Shown piece after piece: positions 18,382 to 37,332 of a DNA stretch of 37,332 bases. Each line of letters starts with the position of its first letter. Positions within the stretch are counted from its first letter, which is position 1. Position numbers and translations under genes: made by a program. This DNA comes from Deltaproteobacteria bacterium (lineage in GTDB: Bacteria; Myxococcota_C; UBA6777): contig PCBK01000106.1 in NCBI GenBank assembly GCA_002731275.1, positions 1 to 37,332 of the forward strand, given 5' to 3'. A model generated the notes under the pieces. The model searched no databases and was not told the DNA's origin. It saw only the letters and a program-made list of their open reading frames with translations.

Positions 18382-20445
18382 TCAGTGGATACCGTCTGTA
18401 TTCTTGGTCTCTTTTGATGCTTTGGGAGTGAGCTGATAACTCGCCTGTCCGGTCCCTTTCGCGGGAACATCAATGGTCACTTCAAGGGGTTCATAGCCAC
18501 TCGGGACGATCTTGATCTGCGCCGAACCAACAGGGAGTGAGCGGATCAACAGATCTCCAGAGGATTGCACGTGGGTGGGGATCCACTGATGCTTCCCATG
18601 ACTGAGCAGTTGGACCATCGTATAAGAAGGAGCTTTACCATCTGGGGTTGTAAGCTTCAGCAAGAAGCGACCGGCGCTGACAAGCTCTACCTTGATCTCT
18701 TTCACTTCAGGTGGTGATGGTGGTGTAATATTCGCGTTAGTCCAGGTCGAATAGCCAGTACTATAAACGACGAGTTTCATCGAGGTTTCGGGGAGATTCT
18801 CGAAGTGTATCTTTCCAGTCGCTTTGGCGCGTTGTGAGAGCCTTTGTCGACCTTTATCCCCCCACGAAAGAAATGCAACGGCCCAGTCTTTAGGGGGTTT
18901 TTGGGTCAGCTTGTCGACAATCGTAAGTGACAACCCCCCTCCCAACAATCGGATATCGTGGCGCGCACCAGTCTCAGCCACCTCGACAACACCGCCATTG
19001 GAAGAGCGTCCTTTCACAGTAACAGAGACGCCATACCGCCCTTTTGGAATCCCATTGATCGTATATGTTCCCGTGTCATCAGCCGCAGTCGAACGTGAAA
19101 CATACTTTCCACTGCGCCAAGAGTTTGAGAGGGAAGACACACGAATAAGCGCCTTGGGTACGGGGGCACCATTGGCATCTGTGACGACTCCTTTGATGGT
19201 TGTGCCTTTGGCACTTGCGAAGTAGATATCTTTGGTAATGACCTTCCCCACGATGATCTTAAGGCTCAACATCTTCCGCTCACGAGCCCCCTGTTTGCCG
19301 TGTGTCACGAAAAGCCTCATTGATCCGCCGGGAAAATTGTGTAGCGCATACTCACCTGCGGCGTTCGTTCGTGAGAATGAGGTATGACTCTTCCCTCCTC
19401 CTCGAATAAAACCAGAGACAGATGCACCTTGAACTGGCTTGCCGTCATTGCCAAACACCTTACCTTTGACCCCACCGACCTCGTTGTTCAGCACGATATC
19501 ACCAAGATCTTGGAACCCAACATCAGAGAGGCGAATCCCCCTTTGACTCCAACTGCTGTGACCTGTTGCATGGATCACGAGACCATAACGACCCGCAGAG
19601 AGTTTTCGAAATGTAAAGCGACCATCTTCTCCTGTGGTGGTGACTTGCGAAGCGCTTGGGGGCCTACGCCCAAAACGCACCATGCTCCACCCCCAGCGAG
19701 AACCGCCAGCAGGAACACACACAACGCGAACACCTGCGAGCGGTTTCTTGGCCTGACCAGAGACAACGCGCCCTTTGATCACACCACTTCCAGAACGAAG
19801 CAACGCAAAGGTCCGGCGAAACGCACTCCCTGCGGGCTGTGTTCTCCCTATCACAGGCAACGAAGGTTTATACCCTTTGGCGACGATCTGTACGATGTAT
19901 TGGCCTGATTTGACTTTTATATCAAAGGCACCATTGGCATCTTTGACCACGATGGTCTTACTTGAAGAAGGCATTTTGGGGACGCTCAGCGTCTGGCTCC
20001 CCCACAGAGAGCCTTTTTGATCGCTTCGTGCATAACGAACAGAGAAGGACTGTAAAGGCGTTCGGTCAGGCAACACCAACACTTTCCCCTTGAGCCAAAG
20101 GTCCTGTGGTTGCTTTTTGGTCCCTTCAGGAGGTGTCTCTCTCGATGATTTTTCAGGGATGATGCCGTCTGCACCTGCGTCGGCTATTTTCCTGGTGGGT
20201 GTACGACTTGGCGATATTCTGCGACCTCTCCTGCGCCCGAAGCTCCCTCCTCCTGACCAAGAAGAGTCTGTGGAAGATGACCTCTTTGTCGGTGTGTTCG
20301 TCCTCTTGCGTTCACGTGGCGTTCTCTTGGCCGGTCCCACAAAGATAAAGTACAAAATCACTCCAACCATACAAAGAATACCAGCGAGCAGCAATTGCAC
20401 ACGCATGGTGGCCACAGGTTGGTGTTTAAAACCATATCGACTCAT
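18382..20445 (-). CDS. Membrane-anchored protein of carboxypeptidase-regulatory-like domains
   Basis: A 687-residue protein with an N-terminal transmembrane helix (about 16-37) and a basic, Ser/Thr/Pro-rich linker (about 40-115). At least five, probably six, beta-sandwich domains of the carboxypeptidase D regulatory type follow, recognisable by KGxVxxxxGxPxxGAxV ... TxxDGxYxxxxLPxGxYxLxVxxxGY patterns at roughly 120-200, 220-310, 320-400, 410-500, 505-585 and 600-680. Such stacks usually serve adhesion, binding or structural roles outside the cell. No peptidase domain is present. The ATG at 20445 has GAGAGG upstream; a GTG six bases earlier is possible. It lies downstream of a Rieske oxygenase gene on the same strand (93-base gap). 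Confidence 0.75.
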   Translation of the reverse strand: MSRYGFKHQPVATMRVQLLLAGILCMVGVILYFIFVGPAKRTPRERKRTNTPTKRSSSTDSSWSGGGSFGRRRGRRISPSRTPTRKIADAGADGIIPEKSSRETPPEGTKKQPQDLWLKGKVLVLPDRTPLQSFSVRYARSDQKGSLWGSQTLSVPKMPSSSKTIVVKDANGAFDIKVKSGQYIVQIVAKGYKPSLPVIGRTQPAGSAFRRTFALLRSGSGVIKGRVVSGQAKKPLAGVRVVCVPAGGSRWGWSMVRFGRRPPSASQVTTTGEDGRFTFRKLSAGRYGLVIHATGHSSWSQRGIRLSDVGFQDLGDIVLNNEVGGVKGKVFGNDGKPVQGASVSGFIRGGGKSHTSFSRTNAAGEYALHNFPGGSMRLFVTHGKQGARERKMLSLKIIVGKVITKDIYFASAKGTTIKGVVTDANGAPVPKALIRVSSLSNSWRSGKYVSRSTAADDTGTYTINGIPKGRYGVSVTVKGRSSNGGVVEVAETGARHDIRLLGGGLSLTIVDKLTQKPPKDWAVAFLSWGDKGRQRLSQRAKATGKIHFENLPETSMKLVVYSTGYSTWTNANITPPSPPEVKEIKVELVSAGRFLLKLTTPDGKAPSYTMVQLLSHGKHQWIPTHVQSSGDLLIRSLPVGSAQIKIVPSGYEPLEVTIDVPAKGTGQASYQLTPKASKETKNTDGIH

Positions 20446-20538
20446 ACACACCTCTCAAACAGTCATTACGCAGACAGACAGGACTCTCCCCCAAGCGTGG
20501 AGTGGTGGTGCAAATGATAGCGAATGTAAGCGTCAATT

Positions 20539-21907: not shown

Positions 21908-24900
21908 ATGGGGACAATAACAAGACTGTCCAGGCGCATTAGGATTTTGGTCCTATGTGGTGTATTGCTGAGCATGTACAGCTGTGGTCCAGAAGTCGTG
22001 GCACCTCCAACAGACGGCTGTGCACTATGCCCCGAAAAATGTAAGCGAATAGGTGAAGGACAGGGGATCTGTGTCACGTGTGTTAATAACGAACAATGTA
22101 GAACCAAGACCAGCCCAACGCGTGTCTGCACAGACCAAAACACCTGTGTCTGTGGTACAGAACAAGATTGTGGTGCAGGTCAGGTCTGTGCCAACGATCG
22201 ATGTGTTGAGTGTGCAGCGGACGAAGATTGCAAAACAGCGTCTGCACCGTTCTGTGTGTCCAATGTTTGTATGTCTTGCAAACAGGGGCAAACCCGACCT
22301 TGCAAAGTCTCCAGCCCAACGCAATGTGATGTAGGACAGCAGGTATGCCGGGCTTCAGGGATTTGGGGCAAATGTGAATTTGAGGGCGGGACCGCCAAGA
22401 GTTGCTTGAGCAACGAAGTCTGTCTCGATGGCGCCTGTGTGTGTTCGGGAGAGTTGGTCAAGTGTACGGGCGAAGCAGACTGTATCGACCTCCGCACCAA
22501 CGCCAAACATTGTGGAGCATGTGGCAACGCCTGCCCCACAGGGACACGTTGCGCCTCCGGTAAGTGCGTCGATACATGCCCCTCTTCTACTCCCCACGAA
22601 TGCGCCAATGCCTGCGTTAACACTTCGCGAAATCCCTTCTTTTGTGGAAGCTGCACCACGAGTTGTAAAATCGGCCAAATCTGCCAGGGAGGGACCTGCC
22701 AATGTCCGCCAGGAGAGTTGTTGTGTGAAGGTCGTTGTATCGATCCTACGACCAACTCCAATCATTGTGGGGCATGTAATAAAGCCTGTCCACAAGGTTC
22801 ACTTTGTGCGTCAGGGGCGTGTAAAAACACATGTCCTCCGAGCACTCCAACGTCTTGCTATGGTGGGTGCGTCGACCTCAAAAGTAACCCACATCACTGC
22901 GGAAAATGCGGCGCAGCATGTCGTCCGGATCAACTCTGTGTCGATGGCAAAATTGTCTGCCCCGAAGATAGCAAAGAATGTGGAAATCGCTGCGTCGACA
23001 CCAACATCCACCCCGAACATTGTGGAGAGTGTGGAAAAGTTTGCAAAGCAGGTCAACTATGTGCAGCAGGTGCTTGTGTAGTCACCTGCCCCTCGGCGAC
23101 GCCGGATGCTTGTTATGGTGGGTGTGTCGACAAGAAGACCAACCCATACCACTGTGGCGCATGTGGAAACACCTGCCCCTCCGGACAATCTTGTACCGCC
23201 GGTAAATGCGAATGCCCCACAGGCTACGTTCGATGCGGAAAGGACTGTGTGGATATCAAGTCAGCTCGCCTCCACTGCGGAAAATGCAACAACGCATGTC
23301 AAAGTAACCAAAACTGTGCAGCCGGTAAATGTGTCTTTTCATGCCCCAAGTCGACCCCCGCGTTGTGCTTTGGTGGTTGTGTCAACACAGACACCAATCC
23401 CCTGCACTGTGGTCAATGTGGAGTTCATTGCACCATCAGTCAGGAATGCATTGGCGGTGAGTGTCTATGTCCAGCAGGAAAAAGTACCTGCGGCAAGTCA
23501 TGTGTCGATCACCAATCAGACCCATACCACTGCGGGCAATGCAATAACGCATGCTCCGAAGTCGAGGCGTGCATCTCCAGTGTCTGCATTTACCAGGGGT
23601 GCGGAGGAGTCCTCACAGAGTGCAACAAAAAATGTGTGGACACCAAAACAAACGCAGCACACTGCGGAAAGTGCGGAGAAGCCTGTCAAACGGGCTATCT
23701 GTGTGTTGCAGGTAAGTGTACCTCGCCATGTAAAGCTCCAGAGGTCTTCTGTGGTGGTGTCTGCGTCAACAGCCAAACGGACGCAAAACACTGCGGAGGC
23801 TGCAACATCGCATGCCAAACAGGAGAAAGCTGCTCCAATGGCGTCTGTGTAAGCTCTGGATGCACCATCGAAAAACCCGTCTCTTGTGGTGGTACATGTA
23901 CCAACCTAAAGACGGATAAACAAAACTGTGGAGCGTGCGGAAACGCCTGTCAATCAGGTGAAGAATGCTGTAACGGCACCTGCGCAGACACCACCTCTAG
24001 CGCAAAAAACTGTGGACTCTGTGGAAATGTCTGCCTTTCAGGTGAAGATTGCTGCGGTGGGTTGTGCAAAGATATCCAATCGGATCGCAACCACTGTGGA
24101 AAGTGCAGTAACGTCTGCACCGCCGGAGATAACTGTTGTGGTGGGACATGTGGAAAACCCCAACAAGGAGCCAAGGATGTCTGCAACCTCAAAGACGACA
24201 ACTGCGATGGCAAAATTGACGAAGACTGCAATTGGCCAAGTAGCGCTTCAGGGACCTTCATCGAAGGCATCGTCTCCCCTATCTCAGGATTGCTAGAACG
24301 CAATCTTCAAATCGTCGCAGACGACAAAGGCAGCGTCTATCTCTCAGGAAGCTATAAAACCTCCGCCGGCTTCGACACCCACACGATCACAACGACAAAC
24401 AACGCCGAATTCTTTATCGCAAAACTCGACTCAACAGGCTCCTTCCAGTGGGCAGTGACAGCGAAAGGCACGAAAGGCAGCATCATCCATTCGATGATCC
24501 TCTCCAAAAAAGGCGATTTGTACATAGGTGGCTCATTCGAGGAGAGTATCGAGGTTAACGGAAAAACGTACAAACCAGGTGGTAAGTCTGAAGCCTTCTT
24601 TGCGAAAGTGGACAAACAGACAGGAGCCTTCAAATCCTTTGCCCACACGACCGGCTCGACAACGTCACAAGCGACGTTCTCCTCTATCGCAGAGGATAAT
24701 GTAGGCACCATCCACGCCGCGATGAACTTTACAGGCACAGTCAGACTCGGAGCCCAATCCCTCACCTCGAAAGGCAAAGCCGACTTTACCCTCTGCCAGT
24801 ATGTCGCAGCACAAAACACATTCGCCTTTATCAAAACAGCAGGTAGCACGAACAGCGAAACGATCCACCGTATCTTTGTCGACCGCAATGGGATTGTCTT

Positions 24901-25555
24901 TGCACTGGGCCACCACGAAGGGGACTTCACATTTGCGAAGACAACTTTCAAATCAAAAGATAAGGCCAACGGATTCCTGATCAAATGGAACGCCACAACA
25001 GACACCATCCTTTGGAGTTACAGTTTCAGCTCGAATACAGAAGTCATCGCGAACATGTTCGCCGTCTCGACCAAAGGTGACGTCTACGTCGGAGGTTCAT
25101 ACAAGGGAACCATGACAACAGGTGGCCCAACACCGTTTATTTCAGGAGGAGACACAGACGTATTTGCCATTGGACTCGACGACAAGGGTAAGTTTGTGTG
25201 GGATCTCACCATCCCAACAACAGGCGCTGACGAAGTAACAGGCGTCGCAATCGACCAGCAAGGCAACGTACATGTTTCCGGATTCTACGGTGCAAGAGCG
25301 ACTTACGGTGTGTTTACGATCACCAACAAAGGGAAGCGCGACGCCATCGCGATCAAGATCGCCCCATCTGGCGGACTTGCTGATACACATGCTGCTGGTA
25401 GCGCAGGTGAAGAGCTGGGACTGAGTATCGCAGTCAGCCCACAAAACAAACTGTTTGTCGGCGGTATGTTTGACACAGACTTCAAATTCACACAGAGCAT
25501 CAAATTCACCAAGAAAGGCACCAAAGACCTCTTCATTTGGAAAAAAGACCCCTGA
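21908..25555 (+). CDS. Giant Cys-rich lipoprotein, 14 Stig1-like units plus MopE-type motif and beta-propeller
   Basis: A 1215-residue exported protein. The signal peptide ends near MYSC, so C26 is a possible lipidation site, although methionine at -3 is atypical. Residues 30-170 hold irregular Cys-rich segments. From about 199 to 758, fourteen units are each marked by HCGxCxxxC, like the plant Stig1 motif. The first eight form four copies of an A-B pair: A has CPSxTPxxCYGGC and B has CxCPxG. A MopE-type motif, CNLKDDNCDGKIDEDC (759-774), follows. Residues 775-1215 repeat VYLSGSYKT / FFIAKLDSTGSFQW-like strands, an SBBP-type beta-propeller. GGAGGA lies eight bases before the ATG. It is the first gene of a four-gene operon. 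Its role is unknown; a rigid, disulfide-rich stalk displaying a propeller on the surface is my inference. Confidence 0.85.
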   Translation: MGTITRLSRRIRILVLCGVLLSMYSCGPEVVAPPTDGCALCPEKCKRIGEGQGICVTCVNNEQCRTKTSPTRVCTDQNTCVCGTEQDCGAGQVCANDRCVECAADEDCKTASAPFCVSNVCMSCKQGQTRPCKVSSPTQCDVGQQVCRASGIWGKCEFEGGTAKSCLSNEVCLDGACVCSGELVKCTGEADCIDLRTNAKHCGACGNACPTGTRCASGKCVDTCPSSTPHECANACVNTSRNPFFCGSCTTSCKIGQICQGGTCQCPPGELLCEGRCIDPTTNSNHCGACNKACPQGSLCASGACKNTCPPSTPTSCYGGCVDLKSNPHHCGKCGAACRPDQLCVDGKIVCPEDSKECGNRCVDTNIHPEHCGECGKVCKAGQLCAAGACVVTCPSATPDACYGGCVDKKTNPYHCGACGNTCPSGQSCTAGKCECPTGYVRCGKDCVDIKSARLHCGKCNNACQSNQNCAAGKCVFSCPKSTPALCFGGCVNTDTNPLHCGQCGVHCTISQECIGGECLCPAGKSTCGKSCVDHQSDPYHCGQCNNACSEVEACISSVCIYQGCGGVLTECNKKCVDTKTNAAHCGKCGEACQTGYLCVAGKCTSPCKAPEVFCGGVCVNSQTDAKHCGGCNIACQTGESCSNGVCVSSGCTIEKPVSCGGTCTNLKTDKQNCGACGNACQSGEECCNGTCADTTSSAKNCGLCGNVCLSGEDCCGGLCKDIQSDRNHCGKCSNVCTAGDNCCGGTCGKPQQGAKDVCNLKDDNCDGKIDEDCNWPSSASGTFIEGIVSPISGLLERNLQIVADDKGSVYLSGSYKTSAGFDTHTITTTNNAEFFIAKLDSTGSFQWAVTAKGTKGSIIHSMILSKKGDLYIGGSFEESIEVNGKTYKPGGKSEAFFAKVDKQTGAFKSFAHTTGSTTSQATFSSIAEDNVGTIHAAMNFTGTVRLGAQSLTSKGKADFTLCQYVAAQNTFAFIKTAGSTNSETIHRIFVDRNGIVFALGHHEGDFTFAKTTFKSKDKANGFLIKWNATTDTILWSYSFSSNTEVIANMFAVSTKGDVYVGGSYKGTMTTGGPTPFISGGDTDVFAIGLDDKGKFVWDLTIPTTGADEVTGVAIDQQGNVHVSGFYGARATYGVFTITNKGKRDAIAIKIAPSGGLADTHAAGSAGEELGLSIAVSPQNKLFVGGMFDTDFKFTQSIKFTKKGTKDLFIWKKDP
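22505..24181 (+). repeat. Tandem coding repeat, 14 Stig1-like units
   Basis: Units of about 29-46 codons, each starting at an HCGxC or similar motif. The first eight alternate in two types (A about 45, B about 42 codons), units 9-11 are about 42-46 codons, and the last three are shorter (about 29 codons). The order is shared with the downstream paralogue. Confidence 0.85.
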
Positions 25556-25584
25556 TACACCTTCCCAAAAAAGGCTTCACCTCG

Positions 25585-28500
25585 ATGAACAAACTTCTTG
25601 TCGGTCAACTGCTCCGAATTTCGGCACTTTTCTGCCTTGGGTTGCTCCTTACAGCTTGCCCTGACACTCCCCCCATCACTCCGCAAGATGCTTGCCAAAG
25701 TTGTCCAGACAAGTGCTTAAAGGACGCAAATGGTGGTGGTGTTTGTGTCACATGCCTTGCCGATCAACAATGTCAAACAAAAACCAGTCCAACCCGACGC
25801 TGTAACGACAACTACGTATGTGTATGTGGTTCACCTGCAGACTGCGGCCCCGGTGAACAGTGTGCGCAAGGACTGTGTGTCCAATGCACCAAAGACGAAC
25901 ACTGCACGACAAGCTCTGAACCATATTGTGTCGCGAATGTTTGCCAATCTTGCAAACAAGGAGACAGCCGCAGCTGTACCGTAAGCAGCCAGCTCCAATG
26001 TGGACAAGGTACACAGCTATGCCGTTCATCAGGGACGTGGGGACAATGTACATTCGAAAAGAGTCCCCCTGCCTGTGACCAAAAGGAGCAGTGTGTCGAA
26101 GGTCGCTGCCTCTGCCGTCAGGGATACAAATCGTGTGACGATGTATGCACCAACACAAACACCGACGCCAAGCACTGTGGAACGTGCGGCAACGCCTGCC
26201 CTACCGGAACCCGTTGTGCCTCTGGTAAATGTGTCGACACATGCCCCTCTTCAACCCCCAGCGAGTGTGGAAACGCCTGCGTCAACTTGCAAAACAATCC
26301 GCTCTTTTGTGGTAGCTGCAACACCTCCTGTAAACCGGGCGAGCTCTGCAAAGCAGGAACATGCACATGTCCGTCGGGACAAGAATCATGTGATGGACAA
26401 TGCATTGCAACGGCGAACAACAGAGAACATTGCGGAGCTTGTTCAACTCCATGTAAAGAGGGACAAGTTTGTGCGTCTGGTGCGTGCAGACAAACCTGCC
26501 CAAAGCGCACACCGACTTCTTGTTATGGCGGCTGTGTCGACCTTCAAATCAACTCTCAACATTGCGGGACATGCGGAACAGCGTGCAGAGACGACCAACT
26601 TTGTCGTGCAGGCGCATGTGTCTGTCCAGACGATCAACTCGAATGTGGCGGTCGCTGTGTCGACACAAAGAACACACTCGAACACTGTGGTGGATGTGGC
26701 AAACCATGTAAAGAGGGACAAAGATGTGCGGAGGGTGTGTGTGTATTGAGCTGCCCTTCGACCACGCCAGATGCATGTTATGGAGGGTGTTTTCAACTCA
26801 AAACAAGCACACAACACTGCGGCACCTGTGGTACTTCCTGTGCAGAAGGACAAACGTGTAACGGGACCTGTCAATGTCCGAAAGACCTACAACTCTGCAA
26901 CAACGAATGTGTCGACACAAAGATACACAGACAGCATTGTGGCAAGTGCGGAAATCTTTGCAAAAACGGACAATATTGTTCCGCTGGAAAGTGCGTCTCT
27001 TCCTGCCCAAAACCAACCCCTACCAATTGCTTTGGGGGATGTGTCTCGCTCCAAAACAACCCCCAACATTGTGGTGCATGTGGCAATGTTTGCAAGAGCG
27101 GACAATCCTGCCAAAACGGCGTATGTGATTGCCCCACAGGTCTCTCCCTCTGTGACGGTGTGTGTGTTGATTTACAAAATAACGCAAAGCACTGTGGGCA
27201 ATGTGACACAACCTGTCGGGGTGTAGAGGCTTGTATCACCGGCACATGTGTATACCAAGGATGCAACCCACCACTCAGAGAGTGCAATCGGACTTGTATC
27301 AACACACAAAACAACAGCCAACATTGTGGCGATTGTGACAAACCATGTACCTCGGGATTCATTTGCAAAAATGGCGCGTGTGAATCTCCTTGCAGCACAG
27401 GTGAAACGTATTGTGCCGGAACATGTGTAGACACAAAGACTACGACCGCTCATTGTGGGGCCTGTGGACAAGCTTGCAAAGCAACCGAAGCGTGTACAGA
27501 GGGAGTGTGTGTCAGCGCAGGTTGCACAAAGGACAAACCAACTTCATGTGCGACCTCCTGTGCTGATACACAATCCGATCCAAATCATTGTGGCGCTTGT
27601 GGGAACACATGTAAGACCGGAGAAGCTTGCTGTTCGGGTACATGCGTCGACACACAGAGAGCAGTCCAACACTGTGGGATGTGTGGAAATGCCTGTGGCG
27701 CAGGCAAAGACTGCTGCGCAGCAACATGTGTCGACACACAAGCAAATACCGCTCATTGCGGCCAATGTGGGAACACATGTAACGCCCAAGAGAATTGCTG
27801 TTCGGGAACCTGCGGAGCACCTAAGACAGGGATAAAAGACCCATGTGATGGAAAAGATAACGACTGCGATGGCCTCATCGATGAAGATTGTGGATATGCT
27901 GTGGGATTTGATGCAAACGTGAGCAACCCAACACTCCACGCAGGTAGGGCTGATCCTGACAGGATGCGTATCTCCCAAGGCCCGAATGGCACGACATTCA
28001 TCGCAGGGACGTTCCAAGATACCTTGGCTTTTGGAACGACCACTGCGCGAAGCCAAAAAAACAGCGCAGGTCAAGCGGTCACGAGTTACTTTGTCGCGTC
28101 ACTCGATACACAAGGAAAACCAAGCAACATCTATTGGCCAACAGGTACAGGAAGAAGCATCCTCTGCGACATCCAATTTCACAACAACGTATTATATGCA
28201 GCCCTTAGCTTTTCAGGCGATATCGTCGTGAATGGAAAAAATTACAGGGCAAAGGCAGCAAGTGATCTGCTGCTCATGACGTTCGACCCAAACACCCTCA
28301 CCCCTACAGTCCTCAGCGTGTTTGCAGGCTCAACAAGTCCCCCGTTCCGCTGCAAGAGGATGCAGGTCGTCCAAAACACCAGCACAAAGCTGTACATAGC
28401 AGGTAGCTGGAAAGGTAACTGGGCACAGGTGACGCCTTACACTGCCAGCAACCCAGAGATCTATCTCCTCGAATTCAATGTCCAATTGAACAAGTTTACG

Positions 28501-29289
28501 AAGAAATTCGCGAGCTACGGAACAGGCACACGTGATCTGAGCCTCATGGACATCGCAGTCCGCAAGACAGCGGTCGGACACTCCATCGTGCTGATGGGAT
28601 ATTGTGATGGAGGGACAGGTCAATCAGACTTCTTGGGGACGAAGTTTCCCTTATCACCAGCCTCGGCGTTTCTCTTTGTGATGGAGATTGATCTGGGGCA
28701 AAACAAGGTCACATGGCAAGAAGAAGCCTCCATATCACAAGCAGGCATCGGCGAGATCATGGGTTACACCCTAGCCATCGATCCTAGCAACAAATACGTG
28801 TACTACACAGGTATGCACGATGATAACGTAAAGTTCCGCACCAACGCCCAGTTGAGTTTAAGCAGCAGCCTCTCGGCGTTTCGTTTCTTTGTCGCGAGAT
28901 TTGACCTCGCGACACAAAAAACAACGAACTTGTATACTTATCCCTTCACAGCGGATCAAGAGTTACGAGACATCAAGGTCGATACGTCTGGGAACATCTG
29001 GATCACAGGACTCCACACAGACATAGGGAAGTTTGGGACCATCCCAGCACCTCATACAGGGGTTGGTGAGAACGCATTCTTGGTCATGCTGGACAAAAAT
29101 GGCGTGCCCCAAAAAGGCTACTTCGCGACAGGAGACAAAAATGAGCGAGGTGACGCTATCGCCTTCTCAACGAATGGCGAAGTCCTCTGGATAGGCTCAA
29201 CCAACTCTACAACAGGCTTCAGCGTGAACAATCAGTCCGTAAACGTGAGCAATACAAACAATATCTTCATCACCAAAATCGCCCCTTGA
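25585..29289 (+). CDS. Second giant Cys-rich Stig1-like lipoprotein, paralogue of the upstream gene
   Basis: A 1234-residue lipoprotein with a good lipobox, LTAC, giving C25. Its layout is colinear with the gene before it: irregular Cys-rich head (about 30-170), fourteen Stig1-like units (about 196-753) in the same A-B order, a MopE-type motif [16 protein letters not shown] (754-769), then a beta-rich C-terminal region (770-1234). That last region is much more diverged and its propeller repeats are harder to see. The ATG at 25585 lies 29 bases after the upstream stop. An in-frame start at 25537 would overlap the upstream gene and spoil the signal peptide. The pair arose by duplication after the 14-unit array existed. 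The two C-terminal regions may bind different targets. Confidence 0.85.
26170..27843 (+). repeat. Tandem coding repeat, 14 Stig1-like units (second copy)
   Basis: It has the same unit number and order as the array in the upstream gene, including four A-B pairs, a variant ninth unit with CxYQGC, and three short final units. Unit 1 is nearly identical in protein to unit 1 of the paralogue but differs at many silent sites. Confidence 0.85.
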
Positions 29290-32280: not shown

Positions 32281-34485
32281 ATGTTCCGATCATATGCACT
32301 TGCGCTTCTGCTTGCCACAGGCTTGCTCGCGAGCTTGATCACCGCCTGTGGTGATACGCCTGGAGGTCCAGGTTCTTGTACTGAGAGTGGAAAGACTTAC
32401 GCAAATGGTGAGTCATTCACTGCGACAGATGGCTGCAACACATGCTCCTGTACTGACGGAAATATCTCCTGTACAGAAAAAGGATGTGTCAGCACTTGTG
32501 ATTACGAGGGGAAAACATACGAGAACGGAAAAACATTCAAATCCTCGAACGGTTGTGGGGATTGTGAATGTAAAAGTGGGAAGGTGGAATGTGTAGACAA
32601 CAAAGCTTGCACAGGTGTCTGTGAGTACAACAAGCAAGTCTACAAAGAAGGTGACACCTTCAAGAGTGAAGACGGTTGCAACACCTGCACCTGTACCAAC
32701 GGCAGCGCAAGCTGCACCAAAAAATCCTGCACAGGAAAAACCTGCGAGTACAACGGAAAAACATACAACGAAGGTGACACGTACCCCTCCACAGACGGCT
32801 GCAATACGTGTACTTGTAGCGCCGGACAATCCACGTGCACAGAGAAAGTCTGCCCAAAGACCTGTTCACATGATGGAAAAACCTACAAAGATGGCGAGAC
32901 CTTTAAATCTTCCGATGGTTGTCAGGAGTGCACTTGCAAAGACGAAAAAGTCACCTGTACAGGCTCCTGTCCCGCCAAAGACTGCACACATAACGGAAAA
33001 ACCTACAAAGACGGTGAGACCTTCAAAGACGACTGTAACGACTGTGTGTGCAAAGACGGAAACGCAACATGTACGGACAGAGCATGTCCGAAAGCGTGTA
33101 CTTACGAAGGAAAAACCTACAAAGACGGCGAGACCTTTCCCGCGACAGATGGCTGTAACACATGCACCTGCTCAGGCGGTCAGGTCGGATGTACCAAGAT
33201 CGCATGTCCCCCCAAGACCTGTGAATACGACGGCAAAACCTACAAAGAAGGTGACACATATCCAGCCACAGATGGTTGCAACACCTGCACTTGTAGCGCC
33301 GGAAAGTCCATTTGTACGGAGAAAGCATGTCCGAAAACATGCACCTACGATGGTAAGACTTACAACGATGGCGATAACTTCCCCGCCAACGACGGCTGTA
33401 ACAAGTGTTCATGCAGCGCAGGCCGAGTGATCTGTACCAAAATCGCCTGCACAGGCTGTGGCTCACCAGCAGTCCAGTGTACAAAATCCCAATTCTGCGG
33501 CTACCCAACAGGGAACTGCGGATCGGACAAAACACAAGGAAAATGTACGACCATAGGAAACATCTGTCCTTCCATCTACAAACCCGTTTGTGGATGTGAT
33601 GGTAAAACCTACTCCAACTCTTGTGTCGCAACAAACAGAAGCGTCTCCATCAAAAGCACTGGTGAATGTTCCAAAATAACATGCACTTATGATGGCAAGA
33701 CCTATAACGATGGCGACAGCTTCCCTGCGACAGACGGCTGCAATACATGCAAGTGTTCAGGTGGTCGGGTTGGTTGTACCAAGATCGCATGTCCCCCCCA
33801 AACTTGTACGTACAACGGAAAAACTTACAAAGAAGGCGACACGTATCCAGCGACAGACGGATGCAACACCTGCACCTGCAAGTCAGGTCAATCCTCATGT
33901 ACCAAAATCGCCTGTACAGGTTGTGGTTCTCCCCCAGTCCAATGTACAAAATCCCAATTCTGTGCGTACCCCGCAGGAAACTGCGGATCAGACAAAACAC
34001 AAGGAAAATGCACAACGACAGGGAATATCTGTCCTGCCATTTACAAGCCTGTTTGTGGATGTGATGGCAAGACTTACTCCAACTCATGTACAGCAATAAG
34101 CCGCGGTATGTCGATCAAAAGCACCGGAGCATGTCCAAAGACAACATGCACGTACAACGGAAAGACTTACAACGACGGTGATACCTTCCTCGCAACAGAT
34201 GGGTGCAACAAGTGTACATGCAGCGGTGGACAAGTTTCTTGTACAAAGATTTTATGCCCACCAGTCAAAGGCTGCGGGACACCTGCAAAGACCTGCGCAT
34301 CCAATGAATTTTGTCTCACACCAGCAGGCAGTTGCGGCGCAAATGCACAAGGCTCTTGCCAGACCAAACCCAGGCTCTGCAATCGCATTTACAAACCTGT
34401 TTGTGGTTGTGATGGAAAGACCTATGGCAACGAATGTAACGCTCGCTCCGCAGGCGTCTCAGTCAAAGCCAGCGGCCCCTGTTGA
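32281..34485 (+). CDS. Lipoprotein of 12 VWC-like repeats and 3 Kazal-type protease-inhibitor domains
   Basis: A 734-residue exported protein with lipobox ITAC (C23). From C33 on it consists of small disulfide-rich modules. Twelve VWC-like repeats of about 40 residues share the pattern CxxxGKTYxDGxTFxxxDGCNxCxCxxGxxxCTxxxC. Three Kazal-type domains lie at 393-463, 548-618 and 665-734, each with [13 protein letters not shown] and the spacing of known inhibitors. The order is VWC1-9, K1, VWC10-11, K2, VWC12, K3. By alignment with the third domain of turkey ovomucoid, the P1 residues would be S431, A586 and R702, suggesting different target proteases. AAGGA precedes the ATG at 32281; an in-frame TTG at 32221 is unlikely. 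A surface shield against foreign or prey proteases is inferred, not shown. Confidence 0.85.
32377..34482 (+). repeat. VWC/Kazal modular coding repeat array
   Basis: Twelve units of about 120 bases and three of about 213 bases. The Kazal block at 33457-33669 is closely repeated at 33922-34134, and the VWC7-8 pair resembles VWC10-11, which points to a fairly recent block duplication. K3 and the first VWC units are more diverged. Confidence 0.8.
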
Positions 34486-35642: not shown

Positions 35643-37332
35643 ATGAGAACGATCACGCTGCTCGTTGGGCTGATGGGATGGATTGCTACATCACAAGTCC
35701 AAGCACACACTGTCCTTTACACAACCAAATTGCCCGCCAAACAAGAACTCAAAAAACTCATGGACACCTATTGGGAAGACTACCTCCAGGCACACCCACT
35801 CTACGCCTCCCAATTAGGATTTCACAAATACGACGACAAACTCGGACGTGTTGACGAAGAAAGTCTTCATAAAAGACACAAGCGACACCAACAACTCTAC
35901 AAACGTCTGTTGCGCATCAAGACGACAGCGCTCGACACAAATGATCAGATCAACTACTACGTGTTCAAACGGCAACTGCACACACAACTCCAAGAGTTCG
36001 CGTTCAAAATGTATCTCATTCCGATCACCAACAGGAATGGATTTCACGTCGAGCTCGCGCGATTTGGTCAACGCACGAGATGTAAGTCGATGCGCTGTTT
36101 CCAACACTACCTGGCCAGGCTCCAGCAGGCAGGACGTTATATCGACGAACACATCGCGCTCATGAAGAAGGGAGTGAGGCTCAATTACTCCATCCCAAAA
36201 GCTGTACTCTCAGGCTTCGAAGACGGCATCGCGAAGCTCATCTCAAAGCAAGTAAACAAGAGCGTCTTCTTCACGCCCTTTTTGACGTGGCCCAACAACC
36301 TGAGCCAGACACAAAAACAGCAACTCAAACAACACGCTGTCAAACTGATCCAAAATGTCGTCCACCCTGCTCTTCAACGCTTTTACACATTCATGAAGCA
36401 AACGTACATCCCCCACGCACGAAAGACCATCGGAGCGTCGACACTGCCGAATGGAAAAGCCTTCTACGCCTACAGGATTCGAAGGTTTACGACATTGCCC
36501 TTGACGCCAAAAGCTGTCCACAACACAGGAAAGCGAGAAGTAGCACGTATTCTCAAGGAGATGCACGCGATCATTCGCAAGGTCAAGTTCAAAGGAACAT
36601 TTAAAGAATTTCTTCGGTTTTTGCGGACATCACCGAGGTTCTACGCCAAGACACCACAAGCCCTGCTCAAAGAGACAAGCTACGTACTCAAGCGCATGGA
36701 TGGTCAACTCCCCAAGTTATTCAAACGACTCCCACGTATCCCATACGGAATCAAGCAAATCCCAGCGTACATTGCCCCCAAGATGACAACAGCCTACTAC
36801 TCACCTCCTCCTGGAGATGGGAGCCGGGGAGGATTCTACTACGTAAACACATACAACTTGAAGAGTCGACCAATCTATGAGATCCAAGCCTTATCCTTTC
36901 ACGAAGCGGTCCCCGGTCATCACCTCCAATTGTCCATACAACTCGAACAAAAGAACCAACACCCGCTTCGTACTTACTTCTATTTTAACGCTTTCATCGA
37001 AGGCTGGGCACTCTACGCCGAGAGATTGGGCAAAGAAGTCGGTTTTTATAAAGATCCCTACAGTGACTTTGGACGCCTGACATACGAGATGTGGCGGGCC
37101 TGTCGACTTGTTGTTGACACTGGTATCCACGCTTTTGGCTGGTCACGTCAAAAAGCAATCGACTACATGGCCCAACACACAGCGCTCTCCATGCACAACA
37201 TCACGATGGAAGTCGATCGATATATCGCATGGCCCGGTCAAGCCGTCTCCTACAAGATGGGTGAGCTTGCCATACGCGCCCTTCGCAAAGAAGCCGAAGA
37301 CACACTCAAAGAACGTTTTGACATCAGGACAT
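35643..37332 (+). CDS. DUF885-family zinc peptidase, partial (3' end outside window)
   Basis: 563 codons are in the window and the frame is still open at the right edge. An N-terminal signal peptide (about 1-22, ending near VQAHT) indicates export to the periplasm. A long helical region follows. The zinc-site motif HEAVPGHH (420-427) and the downstream FIEGWALYAE are hallmarks of the DUF885 family, a group of uncharacterised metallopeptidase-like proteins. E421 would be the catalytic glutamate, the histidines zinc ligands, and the glutamate of EGWALYAE the likely third ligand. AGGAGA lies six bases before the ATG. The family is usually about 550-620 residues, so only a short C-terminal piece should be missing. 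Confidence 0.87.
   Translation, partial: MRTITLLVGLMGWIATSQVQAHTVLYTTKLPAKQELKKLMDTYWEDYLQAHPLYASQLGFHKYDDKLGRVDEESLHKRHKRHQQLYKRLLRIKTTALDTNDQINYYVFKRQLHTQLQEFAFKMYLIPITNRNGFHVELARFGQRTRCKSMRCFQHYLARLQQAGRYIDEHIALMKKGVRLNYSIPKAVLSGFEDGIAKLISKQVNKSVFFTPFLTWPNNLSQTQKQQLKQHAVKLIQNVVHPALQRFYTFMKQTYIPHARKTIGASTLPNGKAFYAYRIRRFTTLPLTPKAVHNTGKREVARILKEMHAIIRKVKFKGTFKEFLRFLRTSPRFYAKTPQALLKETSYVLKRMDGQLPKLFKRLPRIPYGIKQIPAYIAPKMTTAYYSPPPGDGSRGGFYYVNTYNLKSRPIYEIQALSFHEAVPGHHLQLSIQLEQKNQHPLRTYFYFNAFIEGWALYAERLGKEVGFYKDPYSDFGRLTYEMWRACRLVVDTGIHAFGWSRQKAIDYMAQHTALSMHNITMEVDRYIAWPGQAVSYKMGELAIRALRKEAEDTLKERFDIRT

What the first reader, a model, noticed from the sequence alone, without database searches (positions are those of the whole stretch)
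32281..34485. Surface lipoprotein with three Kazal domains of different predicted P1 specificity
By alignment with turkey ovomucoid domain 3 the P1 residues are S431, A586 and R702, so elastase- or subtilisin-like and trypsin-like proteases could each be blocked. Twelve VWC-like modules would hold them away from the membrane. A bacterial anti-protease shield of this kind would be notable.
Basis: partly seen in the sequence, partly recalled or inferred. Interest (0 to 1): 0.65.

Follow-up and report, generated by a model that had tools for sequence, protein, structure and literature searches.

The report
Bacterial lipoprotein with variant Kazal domains
A large-genome bacterium carries a real, membrane-anchored, cysteine-packed protein with three Kazal-fold domains, usually protease blockers but here with one cysteine moved, on a chain of twelve small six-cysteine modules; whether it blocks proteases is untested.

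Summary
The ORF 32281-34485 (+) encodes a 734-aa predicted lipoprotein with twelve six-Cys modules (9+2+1) and three Kazal domains whose P1 residues are S431, A586 and R702. Its 103 Cys are fully used: 1 lipobox + 12x6 + 3x10.

Three corrections. (1) The "VWC" modules lack VWC subdomain 2. They share one small fold with VWF/mucin E modules (nearest by sequence), FN1, RECK-FnI and pacifastin inhibitors, and match the hairpin pacifastin-like class reported from bacteria in 2026. Ten of twelve keep pacifastin's reactive loop, so they may be more than spacers. (2) Each Kazal follows a four-Cys hairpin, as in follistatin domains, lacks classical Cys5 and carries a Cys in VCGCDG instead. In 88 bacterial Kazals the two never occur together (81/6/1 neither), suggesting a relocated disulfide; the classical pattern is not met, though fold and P1 loop are. 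(3) It is one of several paralogues: all five sampled genomes of its family have 11-17 Kazal matches, against 12 of 381 others with any.

Inhibition is plausible but unshown: P1 is often acidic or Gln, and a structural or adhesive role is a strong rival. Anti-protease shield: partly supported.

The parts
32281..32349 (+). Signal peptide ending in a lipobox (LITA-C23); Cys23 is the predicted lipidation site
   Evidence: Sequence; a Shine-Dalgarno-like AAGGAAAAAGACC precedes the ATG. No SPII predictor was run.
32377..32487 (+). Six-Cys module 1 (residues 33-69), P1-equivalent Glu
32497..32610 (+). Six-Cys module 2 (73-110), deviant loop CVDNKAC, no Asn after C2
32620..32730 (+). Six-Cys module 3 (114-150), P1-equivalent Lys; Pacifastin_I above cut-off on its own
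32743..32853 (+). Six-Cys module 4 (155-191), P1-equivalent Glu
32863..32970 (+). Six-Cys module 5 (195-230), deviant short loop CTGSC
32983..33087 (+). Six-Cys module 6 (235-269), P1-equivalent Asp; best match to VWF E module (E=2e-8) and to Pacifastin_I (39.5 bits)
33097..33207 (+). Six-Cys module 7 (273-309), P1-equivalent Lys
   Evidence: AF2 model of modules 7-8, pLDDT 86
33220..33330 (+). Six-Cys module 8 (314-350), P1-equivalent Glu
33340..33450 (+). Six-Cys module 9 (354-390), P1-equivalent Lys
33457..33669 (+). Follistatin-like 10-Cys unit 1: four-Cys hairpin + Kazal 1 (P1 S431 at 33571-33573; extra Cys439 at 33595-33597; no classical Cys5)
33682..33792 (+). Six-Cys module 10 (468-504), P1-equivalent Lys
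33805..33915 (+). Six-Cys module 11 (509-545), P1-equivalent Lys
33922..34134 (+). Follistatin-like unit 2: hairpin + Kazal 2 (P1 A586 at 34036-34038; extra Cys594 at 34060-34062)
34147..34257 (+). Six-Cys module 12 (623-659), P1-equivalent Lys
34273..34482 (+). Follistatin-like unit 3: hairpin + Kazal 3 (P1 R702 at 34384-34386; extra Cys710 at 34408-34410); C-terminus of the protein
   Evidence: AF2 model of module 12 + unit 3, pLDDT 82, Kazal part about 91; phmmer to LDTI and ovomucoid

Best explanation
A disulfide-saturated, lipid-anchored extracytoplasmic protein, one of a paralogous family, built from two small cysteine modules. Twelve FN1/VWF-E/pacifastin-like six-Cys modules form a semi-rigid rod. 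Three follistatin-like units (four-Cys hairpin + Kazal) sit at and near its free end. Each Kazal presents a canonical P3-P3' loop (P1 Ser, Ala, Arg), held by the C2-C4 and C3-C6 bridges and the conserved Tyr/Asn spacer, so it can act as a substrate-like inhibitor of S1/S8-type serine proteases met outside the cell (prey, host, predator or neighbours). The classical C1-C5 bridge is most likely replaced by a bond from C1 to the Cys of VCGCDG. Shown here: gene, selection, domain anatomy, Cys bookkeeping, Kazal fold (sequence plus model), P1 register, mutual exclusivity of the two Cys positions, family expansion. Inferred: lipidation and surface exposure, the replacement disulfide, inhibition, the targets.
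For: Kazal: Pfam 33-37 bits for units 1 and 3 alone, above cut-off; phmmer to leech tryptase inhibitor E about 1e-9 for the whole protein and about 1e-8 for unit 3; AF2 model aligns 39 of 40 residues of LDTI at 1.8 A, 56% identity, Z 5.7, ovomucoid third domain at about 2 A (Z below 8, so the weight comes from sequence plus fold). Across 73 distinct family Kazals C2-x7-C3 is invariant, Tyr and Asn of TYxN are 67/73 each, Thr is the commonest P2 and Tyr the commonest P2', and P1 is among the most variable positions (3.43 bits). Cys count 103 = 1 + 72 + 30. Extra Cys versus Cys5 in 88 bacterial Kazals: 81 only extra, 6 only Cys5, 1 neither, 0 both (Fisher p about 1e-8, not corrected for relatedness). 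Four-Cys hairpin before 66 of 69 Kazals that could be scored; hairpin + Kazal aligns to a follistatin domain over 65 residues. All five sampled family members have 11-17 Kazal matches, 12 of 381 others have any.
Against: No inhibition data. P1 of 73 family Kazals: 14 acidic, 15 Gln/Asn, only 5 large hydrophobic. P1 is not the single most variable site (a helix position reaches 3.55 bits). Follistatin-type Kazals in animals are generally binding or matrix modules (established knowledge), and RECK's Kazals, predicted serine-protease inhibitors, were found to regulate metalloproteases instead (PMC12842694). Classical Cys5 absent. No coordinates were available, so the replacement disulfide was not measured.
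Confidence: 0.5

Rival explanations
1. A structural or adhesive surface protein: E/FN1-like and follistatin-like modules serve as rod, matrix or binding modules, with no protease inhibition. Kazal loops are exposed but drift.
For: Nearest solved relative of a module by sequence is the VWF E module (E 2e-8), with mucin E modules also above the inhibitors; pacifastins come at 5e-5 or worse. Fold search is led by FN1 and MUC5B E modules, pacifastins at Z 3.6-3.8. P1 spectrum is polar/acidic. Neighbouring giant STIG1-repeat proteins suggest a general Cys-rich cell coat.
Against: C2-x7-C3 geometry, Tyr/Asn spacer and loop support residues are kept in nearly all 73 Kazals, which an idle loop would not need. 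P1 is identical in 12/12 orthologous Kazal pairs (not significant at 79-96% overall identity).
Confidence: 0.35
2. Up to fifteen heads: the six-Cys modules are also inhibitors (pacifastin type, P1 at Cys5+2), mostly Lys, so the protein is a multi-headed trypsin-like trap.
For: Pacifastin_I above the curated cut-off for modules 3 and 6 alone and 120 bits for the whole. 10 of 12 modules keep Asn after C2, Gly in C4-C5, Thr after C5 and four residues between C5 and C6. Family: Asn 85/86, Gly 82/86, Thr 77/86. Same class reported from bacteria and other non-metazoa with K and E prominent at P1 (PMC13388995).
Against: The same six-Cys signature, including CNTC and CT, is in the VWF E module, which contributes to factor VIII binding and is not known as an inhibitor. 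P1 is not an outlier in variability (2.73 bits) and is Glu or Asp in about a quarter.
Confidence: 0.15
3. Self-regulation: the Kazals control the bacterium's own lipoprotein S1 proteases.
For: Own genome has 18 PF00089 matches. About ten are large proteins with TAAHC/GDSGG motifs and long Cys-rich tails, several with a Cys at the end of the signal peptide. The four relatives have 11-23 matches.
Against: None of these S1 proteases has Asp189 by alignment of the GDSGG motif; most have Ser, one Gly, one His, which does not match P1 Arg and only loosely P1 Ser/Ala. No consistent gene neighbourhood. A 9-Mb control genome without a Kazal match also has 11.
Confidence: 0.12
4. Eukaryotic contamination or mis-assembly.
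For: Domain types are best known from animals.
Against: Intron-free, lipobox, flanked by bacterial-type metabolic genes, paralogues on at least four other contigs and in four related genomes.
Confidence: 0.01

Closest known systems
Kazal inhibitors: leech tryptase inhibitor LDTI and ovomucoid domain 3
   Same: C2-x7-C3 reactive loop, P1 register, TYxN spacer, helix, and C2, C3, C4, C6 cysteines; 55-56% identity to LDTI over about 39 residues
   Different: Classical Cys5 missing, Cys in VCGCDG present, preceded by a four-Cys hairpin
Follistatin domains (follistatin, FSTL1, FSTL3)
   Same: Four-Cys hairpin followed by Kazal, ten Cys per unit, 65 residues align, phmmer E 0.005 to follistatin
   Different: One Cys lies in VCGCDG rather than in the helix; reactive loop has the seven-residue inhibitor spacing
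Pacifastin-like domains, 'ancestral' beta-hairpin class (PMC13388995)
   Same: Six-Cys pattern with 16-18 residues between C1 and C2, Asn after C2, Gly in C4-C5, Thr after C5, multidomain context, bacterial occurrence, K and E at P1
   Different: That paper counts 24 bacterial accessions (myxobacteria, CPR); the passages read mention Kazal only as an accessory domain, not a bacterial pacifastin-Kazal family
VWF and mucin E (TILa) modules, fibronectin type 1, VWC subdomain 1
   Same: Fold and six-Cys signature; E 2e-8 to VWF
   Different: Stand-alone tandem modules, no D assembly, no SD2
RECK
   Same: Membrane-anchored protein with FnI-type and Kazal-type modules; both module kinds match by sequence
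   Different: GPI anchor, cysteine-knot and frizzled domains, other order; regulates metalloproteases (PMC12842694)

Membership tests
Kazal (classical six-Cys inhibitor) | Pfam Kazal_1 above gathering score | tested here: met
   33.4 and 37.4 bits for units 1 and 3 alone, cut-off 21; 3 stretches in the whole
Kazal (classical six-Cys inhibitor) | Reactive loop C2-x7-C3 with P1 two after C2, and Tyr/Asn spacer | tested here: met
   [39 protein letters not shown]
Kazal (classical six-Cys inhibitor) | Six Cys with C1-C5, C2-C4, C3-C6 bridges | tested here: not met
   Cys5 absent in all three; extra Cys in VCGCDG. Hence 'Kazal-fold variant', not classical Kazal
Kazal (classical six-Cys inhibitor) | Kazal fold with exposed P1 loop | tested here: inconclusive
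   AF2 pLDDT about 91 in the Kazal part; best rows are Kazal inhibitors at Z 4-5.7, rmsd 1.1-2.9; loop exposure not measured
Kazal (classical six-Cys inhibitor) | Inhibits a serine protease | not testable with these tools
   needs bench assay
VWC domain | Two subdomains, ten conserved Cys (PMC10326224) | tested here: not met
   Six Cys per module; in the module scans Pfam VWC aligns only positions 1-38 (1-42 in the best stretch) of 57
Pacifastin-like domain | Conventional pattern C1-x9-12-C2-N-x-C3-x-C4-x2-3-G-x3-6-C5-T-x3-C6 (PMC2689174) | tested here: not met
   C1-C2 spacing is 16-18; the rest is met in 10 of 12 modules
Pacifastin-like domain | Hairpin class of PMC13388995: N-terminal extension of 13-20 residues, Asn after C2, Gly in C4-C5 | tested here: met
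   10 of 12 modules; modules 2 and 5 deviate
Pacifastin-like domain | Inhibits a serine protease through the Cys5-Cys6 loop | not testable with these tools
   needs bench assay
Follistatin domain | EGF-like hairpin + Kazal, ten Cys at conserved positions | tested here: not met
   Ten Cys and the architecture are present, but one Cys is in a different place
Bacterial lipoprotein | Signal peptide with lipobox ending in Cys | tested here: met
   LLASLITAC23 by inspection; processing not tested

The most novel reading that the evidence does not exclude
A bacterial lineage has built an expanded, lipid-anchored, multi-headed serine-protease inhibitor system that combines two inhibitor folds in one chain (Kazal-fold with a relocated disulfide, and pacifastin-type), with P1 residues diversified between repeats.
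Probability: 0.2. Interest if true: 0.75.

Novelty: new variant of a known kind. Interest (0 to 1): 0.5.

Why it matters
If the domains inhibit, this would be a bacterial counterpart of animal multi-domain inhibitors, with many P1 variants per genome, useful for asking how bacteria withstand proteases of prey, hosts or neighbours. Whatever the function, the exclusive use of one of two cysteine positions gives a clean, testable case of a disulfide that moved within a classic fold, and the family joins two inhibitor-type modules in one bacterial protein.

Tried and rejected
NCBIfam: no match. Literature on bacterial Kazal proteins: the hits held were off target (author names) or annotation-level only, e.g. 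a Kazal-type inhibitor noted in a sponge thaumarchaeon (PMC6697440). P1 hypervariability as proof of inhibitor selection: P1 is highly variable in the Kazals but not unique, and not an outlier in the six-Cys modules; conservation of P1 between orthologues is not significant. Pairing with the genome's own S1 proteases by pocket residue: no fit. Hand-typed scrambles used as HMM controls gave no Kazal/VWC match, but the shuffles are the better control.

Full report
What is there. The ORF at 32281-34485 (+) is real: 734 aa, signal-like N-terminus ending LITA-C23, a plausible ribosome-binding site, and strong purifying selection. Two internal near-duplicate units differ mostly at third codon positions (53 of 79), dN/dS about 0.09. 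The regular spacing of cysteines yields twelve six-Cys modules: nine in a row, then Kazal 1, two modules, Kazal 2, one module, Kazal 3. All cysteines are accounted for: one in the lipobox, 72 in modules, 30 in three ten-Cys units, so every one after Cys23 can pair. The P1 assignments S431, A586 and R702 are correct.

The modules. A VWC domain has ten Cys in two subdomains (PMC10326224); here the second is missing throughout. Single modules match VWC, Pacifastin_I, FnI_RECK and TILa; for modules 3 and 6 pacifastin scores highest. Among solved structures, module 6 is nearest to the E module of von Willebrand factor (E 2e-8), then mucin E modules, then pacifastins. A two-module AF2 model (pLDDT 86) gives FN1, MUC5B E and pacifastin folds among its rows (all Z under 6, so this says only that they share a common small fold). 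A 2026 paper describes this form, six Cys with an N-terminal hairpin of 13-20 residues, as an ancestral class of pacifastin-like domains, counts 24 bacterial accessions, and reports Lys and Glu as typical P1 residues outside arthropods (PMC13388995). Ten of the twelve window modules keep the diagnostic loop; their P1 would be E, K, E, D, K, E, K, K, K, K. Because the VWF E module has the same signature and is not known as an inhibitor, the signature alone does not prove inhibition.

The Kazals. Sequence and model agree on a Kazal fold with the reactive loop in register. Two features were missed. First, each Kazal follows a four-Cys hairpin; together they align to follistatin domains over 65 residues. 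Second, classical Cys5 is absent and a Cys stands in VCGCDG. In all 76 Kazals read with this pattern search in the family the arrangement is the same. A second search not requiring the extra Cys, over 88 distinct Kazals from this and other bacterial families, found 81 with only the new Cys, six with only Cys5, one with neither, none with both. The six classical-type ones include two in the same genome (contig C34) and two in a relative. This is what a relocated bridge (C1 to the VCGCDG Cys) would produce, and it spans several unrelated families; the count is not corrected for relatedness, and the bond itself was not measured.

Family and distribution. The 10.75-Mb genome holds paralogues on contigs C153 (five Kazals), C121, C23, C40 (an identical copy on C199), and module-only or classical-Kazal proteins on C70 and C34. 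Of 386 genomes sampled, 17 have any Kazal match, and only these five have Pacifastin_I above cut-off. So the combination marks this lineage, within a sparse sample.

Function. The Kazal geometry that matters for canonical inhibition is preserved in nearly all 73 distinct domains, which favours working inhibitors. Against this stand the P1 spectrum (14 acidic, 15 Gln/Asn, 5 large hydrophobic of 73) and the precedent of RECK, whose Kazals do not act as first predicted (PMC12842694). Targets are unknown. The genome's own S1 proteases, numerous and several lipoprotein-like, have Ser, Gly or His where trypsin has Asp189, so they are poor candidates for R702; foreign proteases remain the default. 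Surface exposure rests on the lipobox alone.

Verdict. Observation confirmed; interpretation partly supported. It is not filed as a classical Kazal protein because the defining disulfide pattern is not met, nor as VWC. That it works like a multi-domain canonical inhibitor is about even odds.

Noticed in passing
21908-25555 and 25537-29289: Two adjacent giant Cys-rich proteins (1215 and 1250 aa) with 11-12 STIG1-like repeats each (PF04885, E 3e-60), a family named after plant stigma proteins; unexplained in a bacterium.
   Followed up: no
L137-L140, L143-L147, L149 (own genome): Expanded set of S1 proteases, most 790-880 aa, with TAAHC/GDSGG motifs, several with a lipobox-like Cys, and long Cys-rich tails; S1-pocket residue Ser, Gly or His, never Asp.
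   Followed up: partly
L061 and L083: Classical-type Kazals (C1-x-C2, Cys5 present, no VCGC) in the same genomes as the variant type, in proteins with a different architecture.
   Followed up: partly
L062 and L087: Identical 222-aa gene on contigs C40 and C199 of the assembly, probably an assembly duplicate.
   Followed up: no
35644-37332: ORF running off the window with a HEAVPGHH-like motif, likely a DUF885-type protein (recognised from memory, not tested; sequence).
   Followed up: no
18382-20451 (-): Protein with three carboxypeptidase regulatory-like repeats.
   Followed up: no
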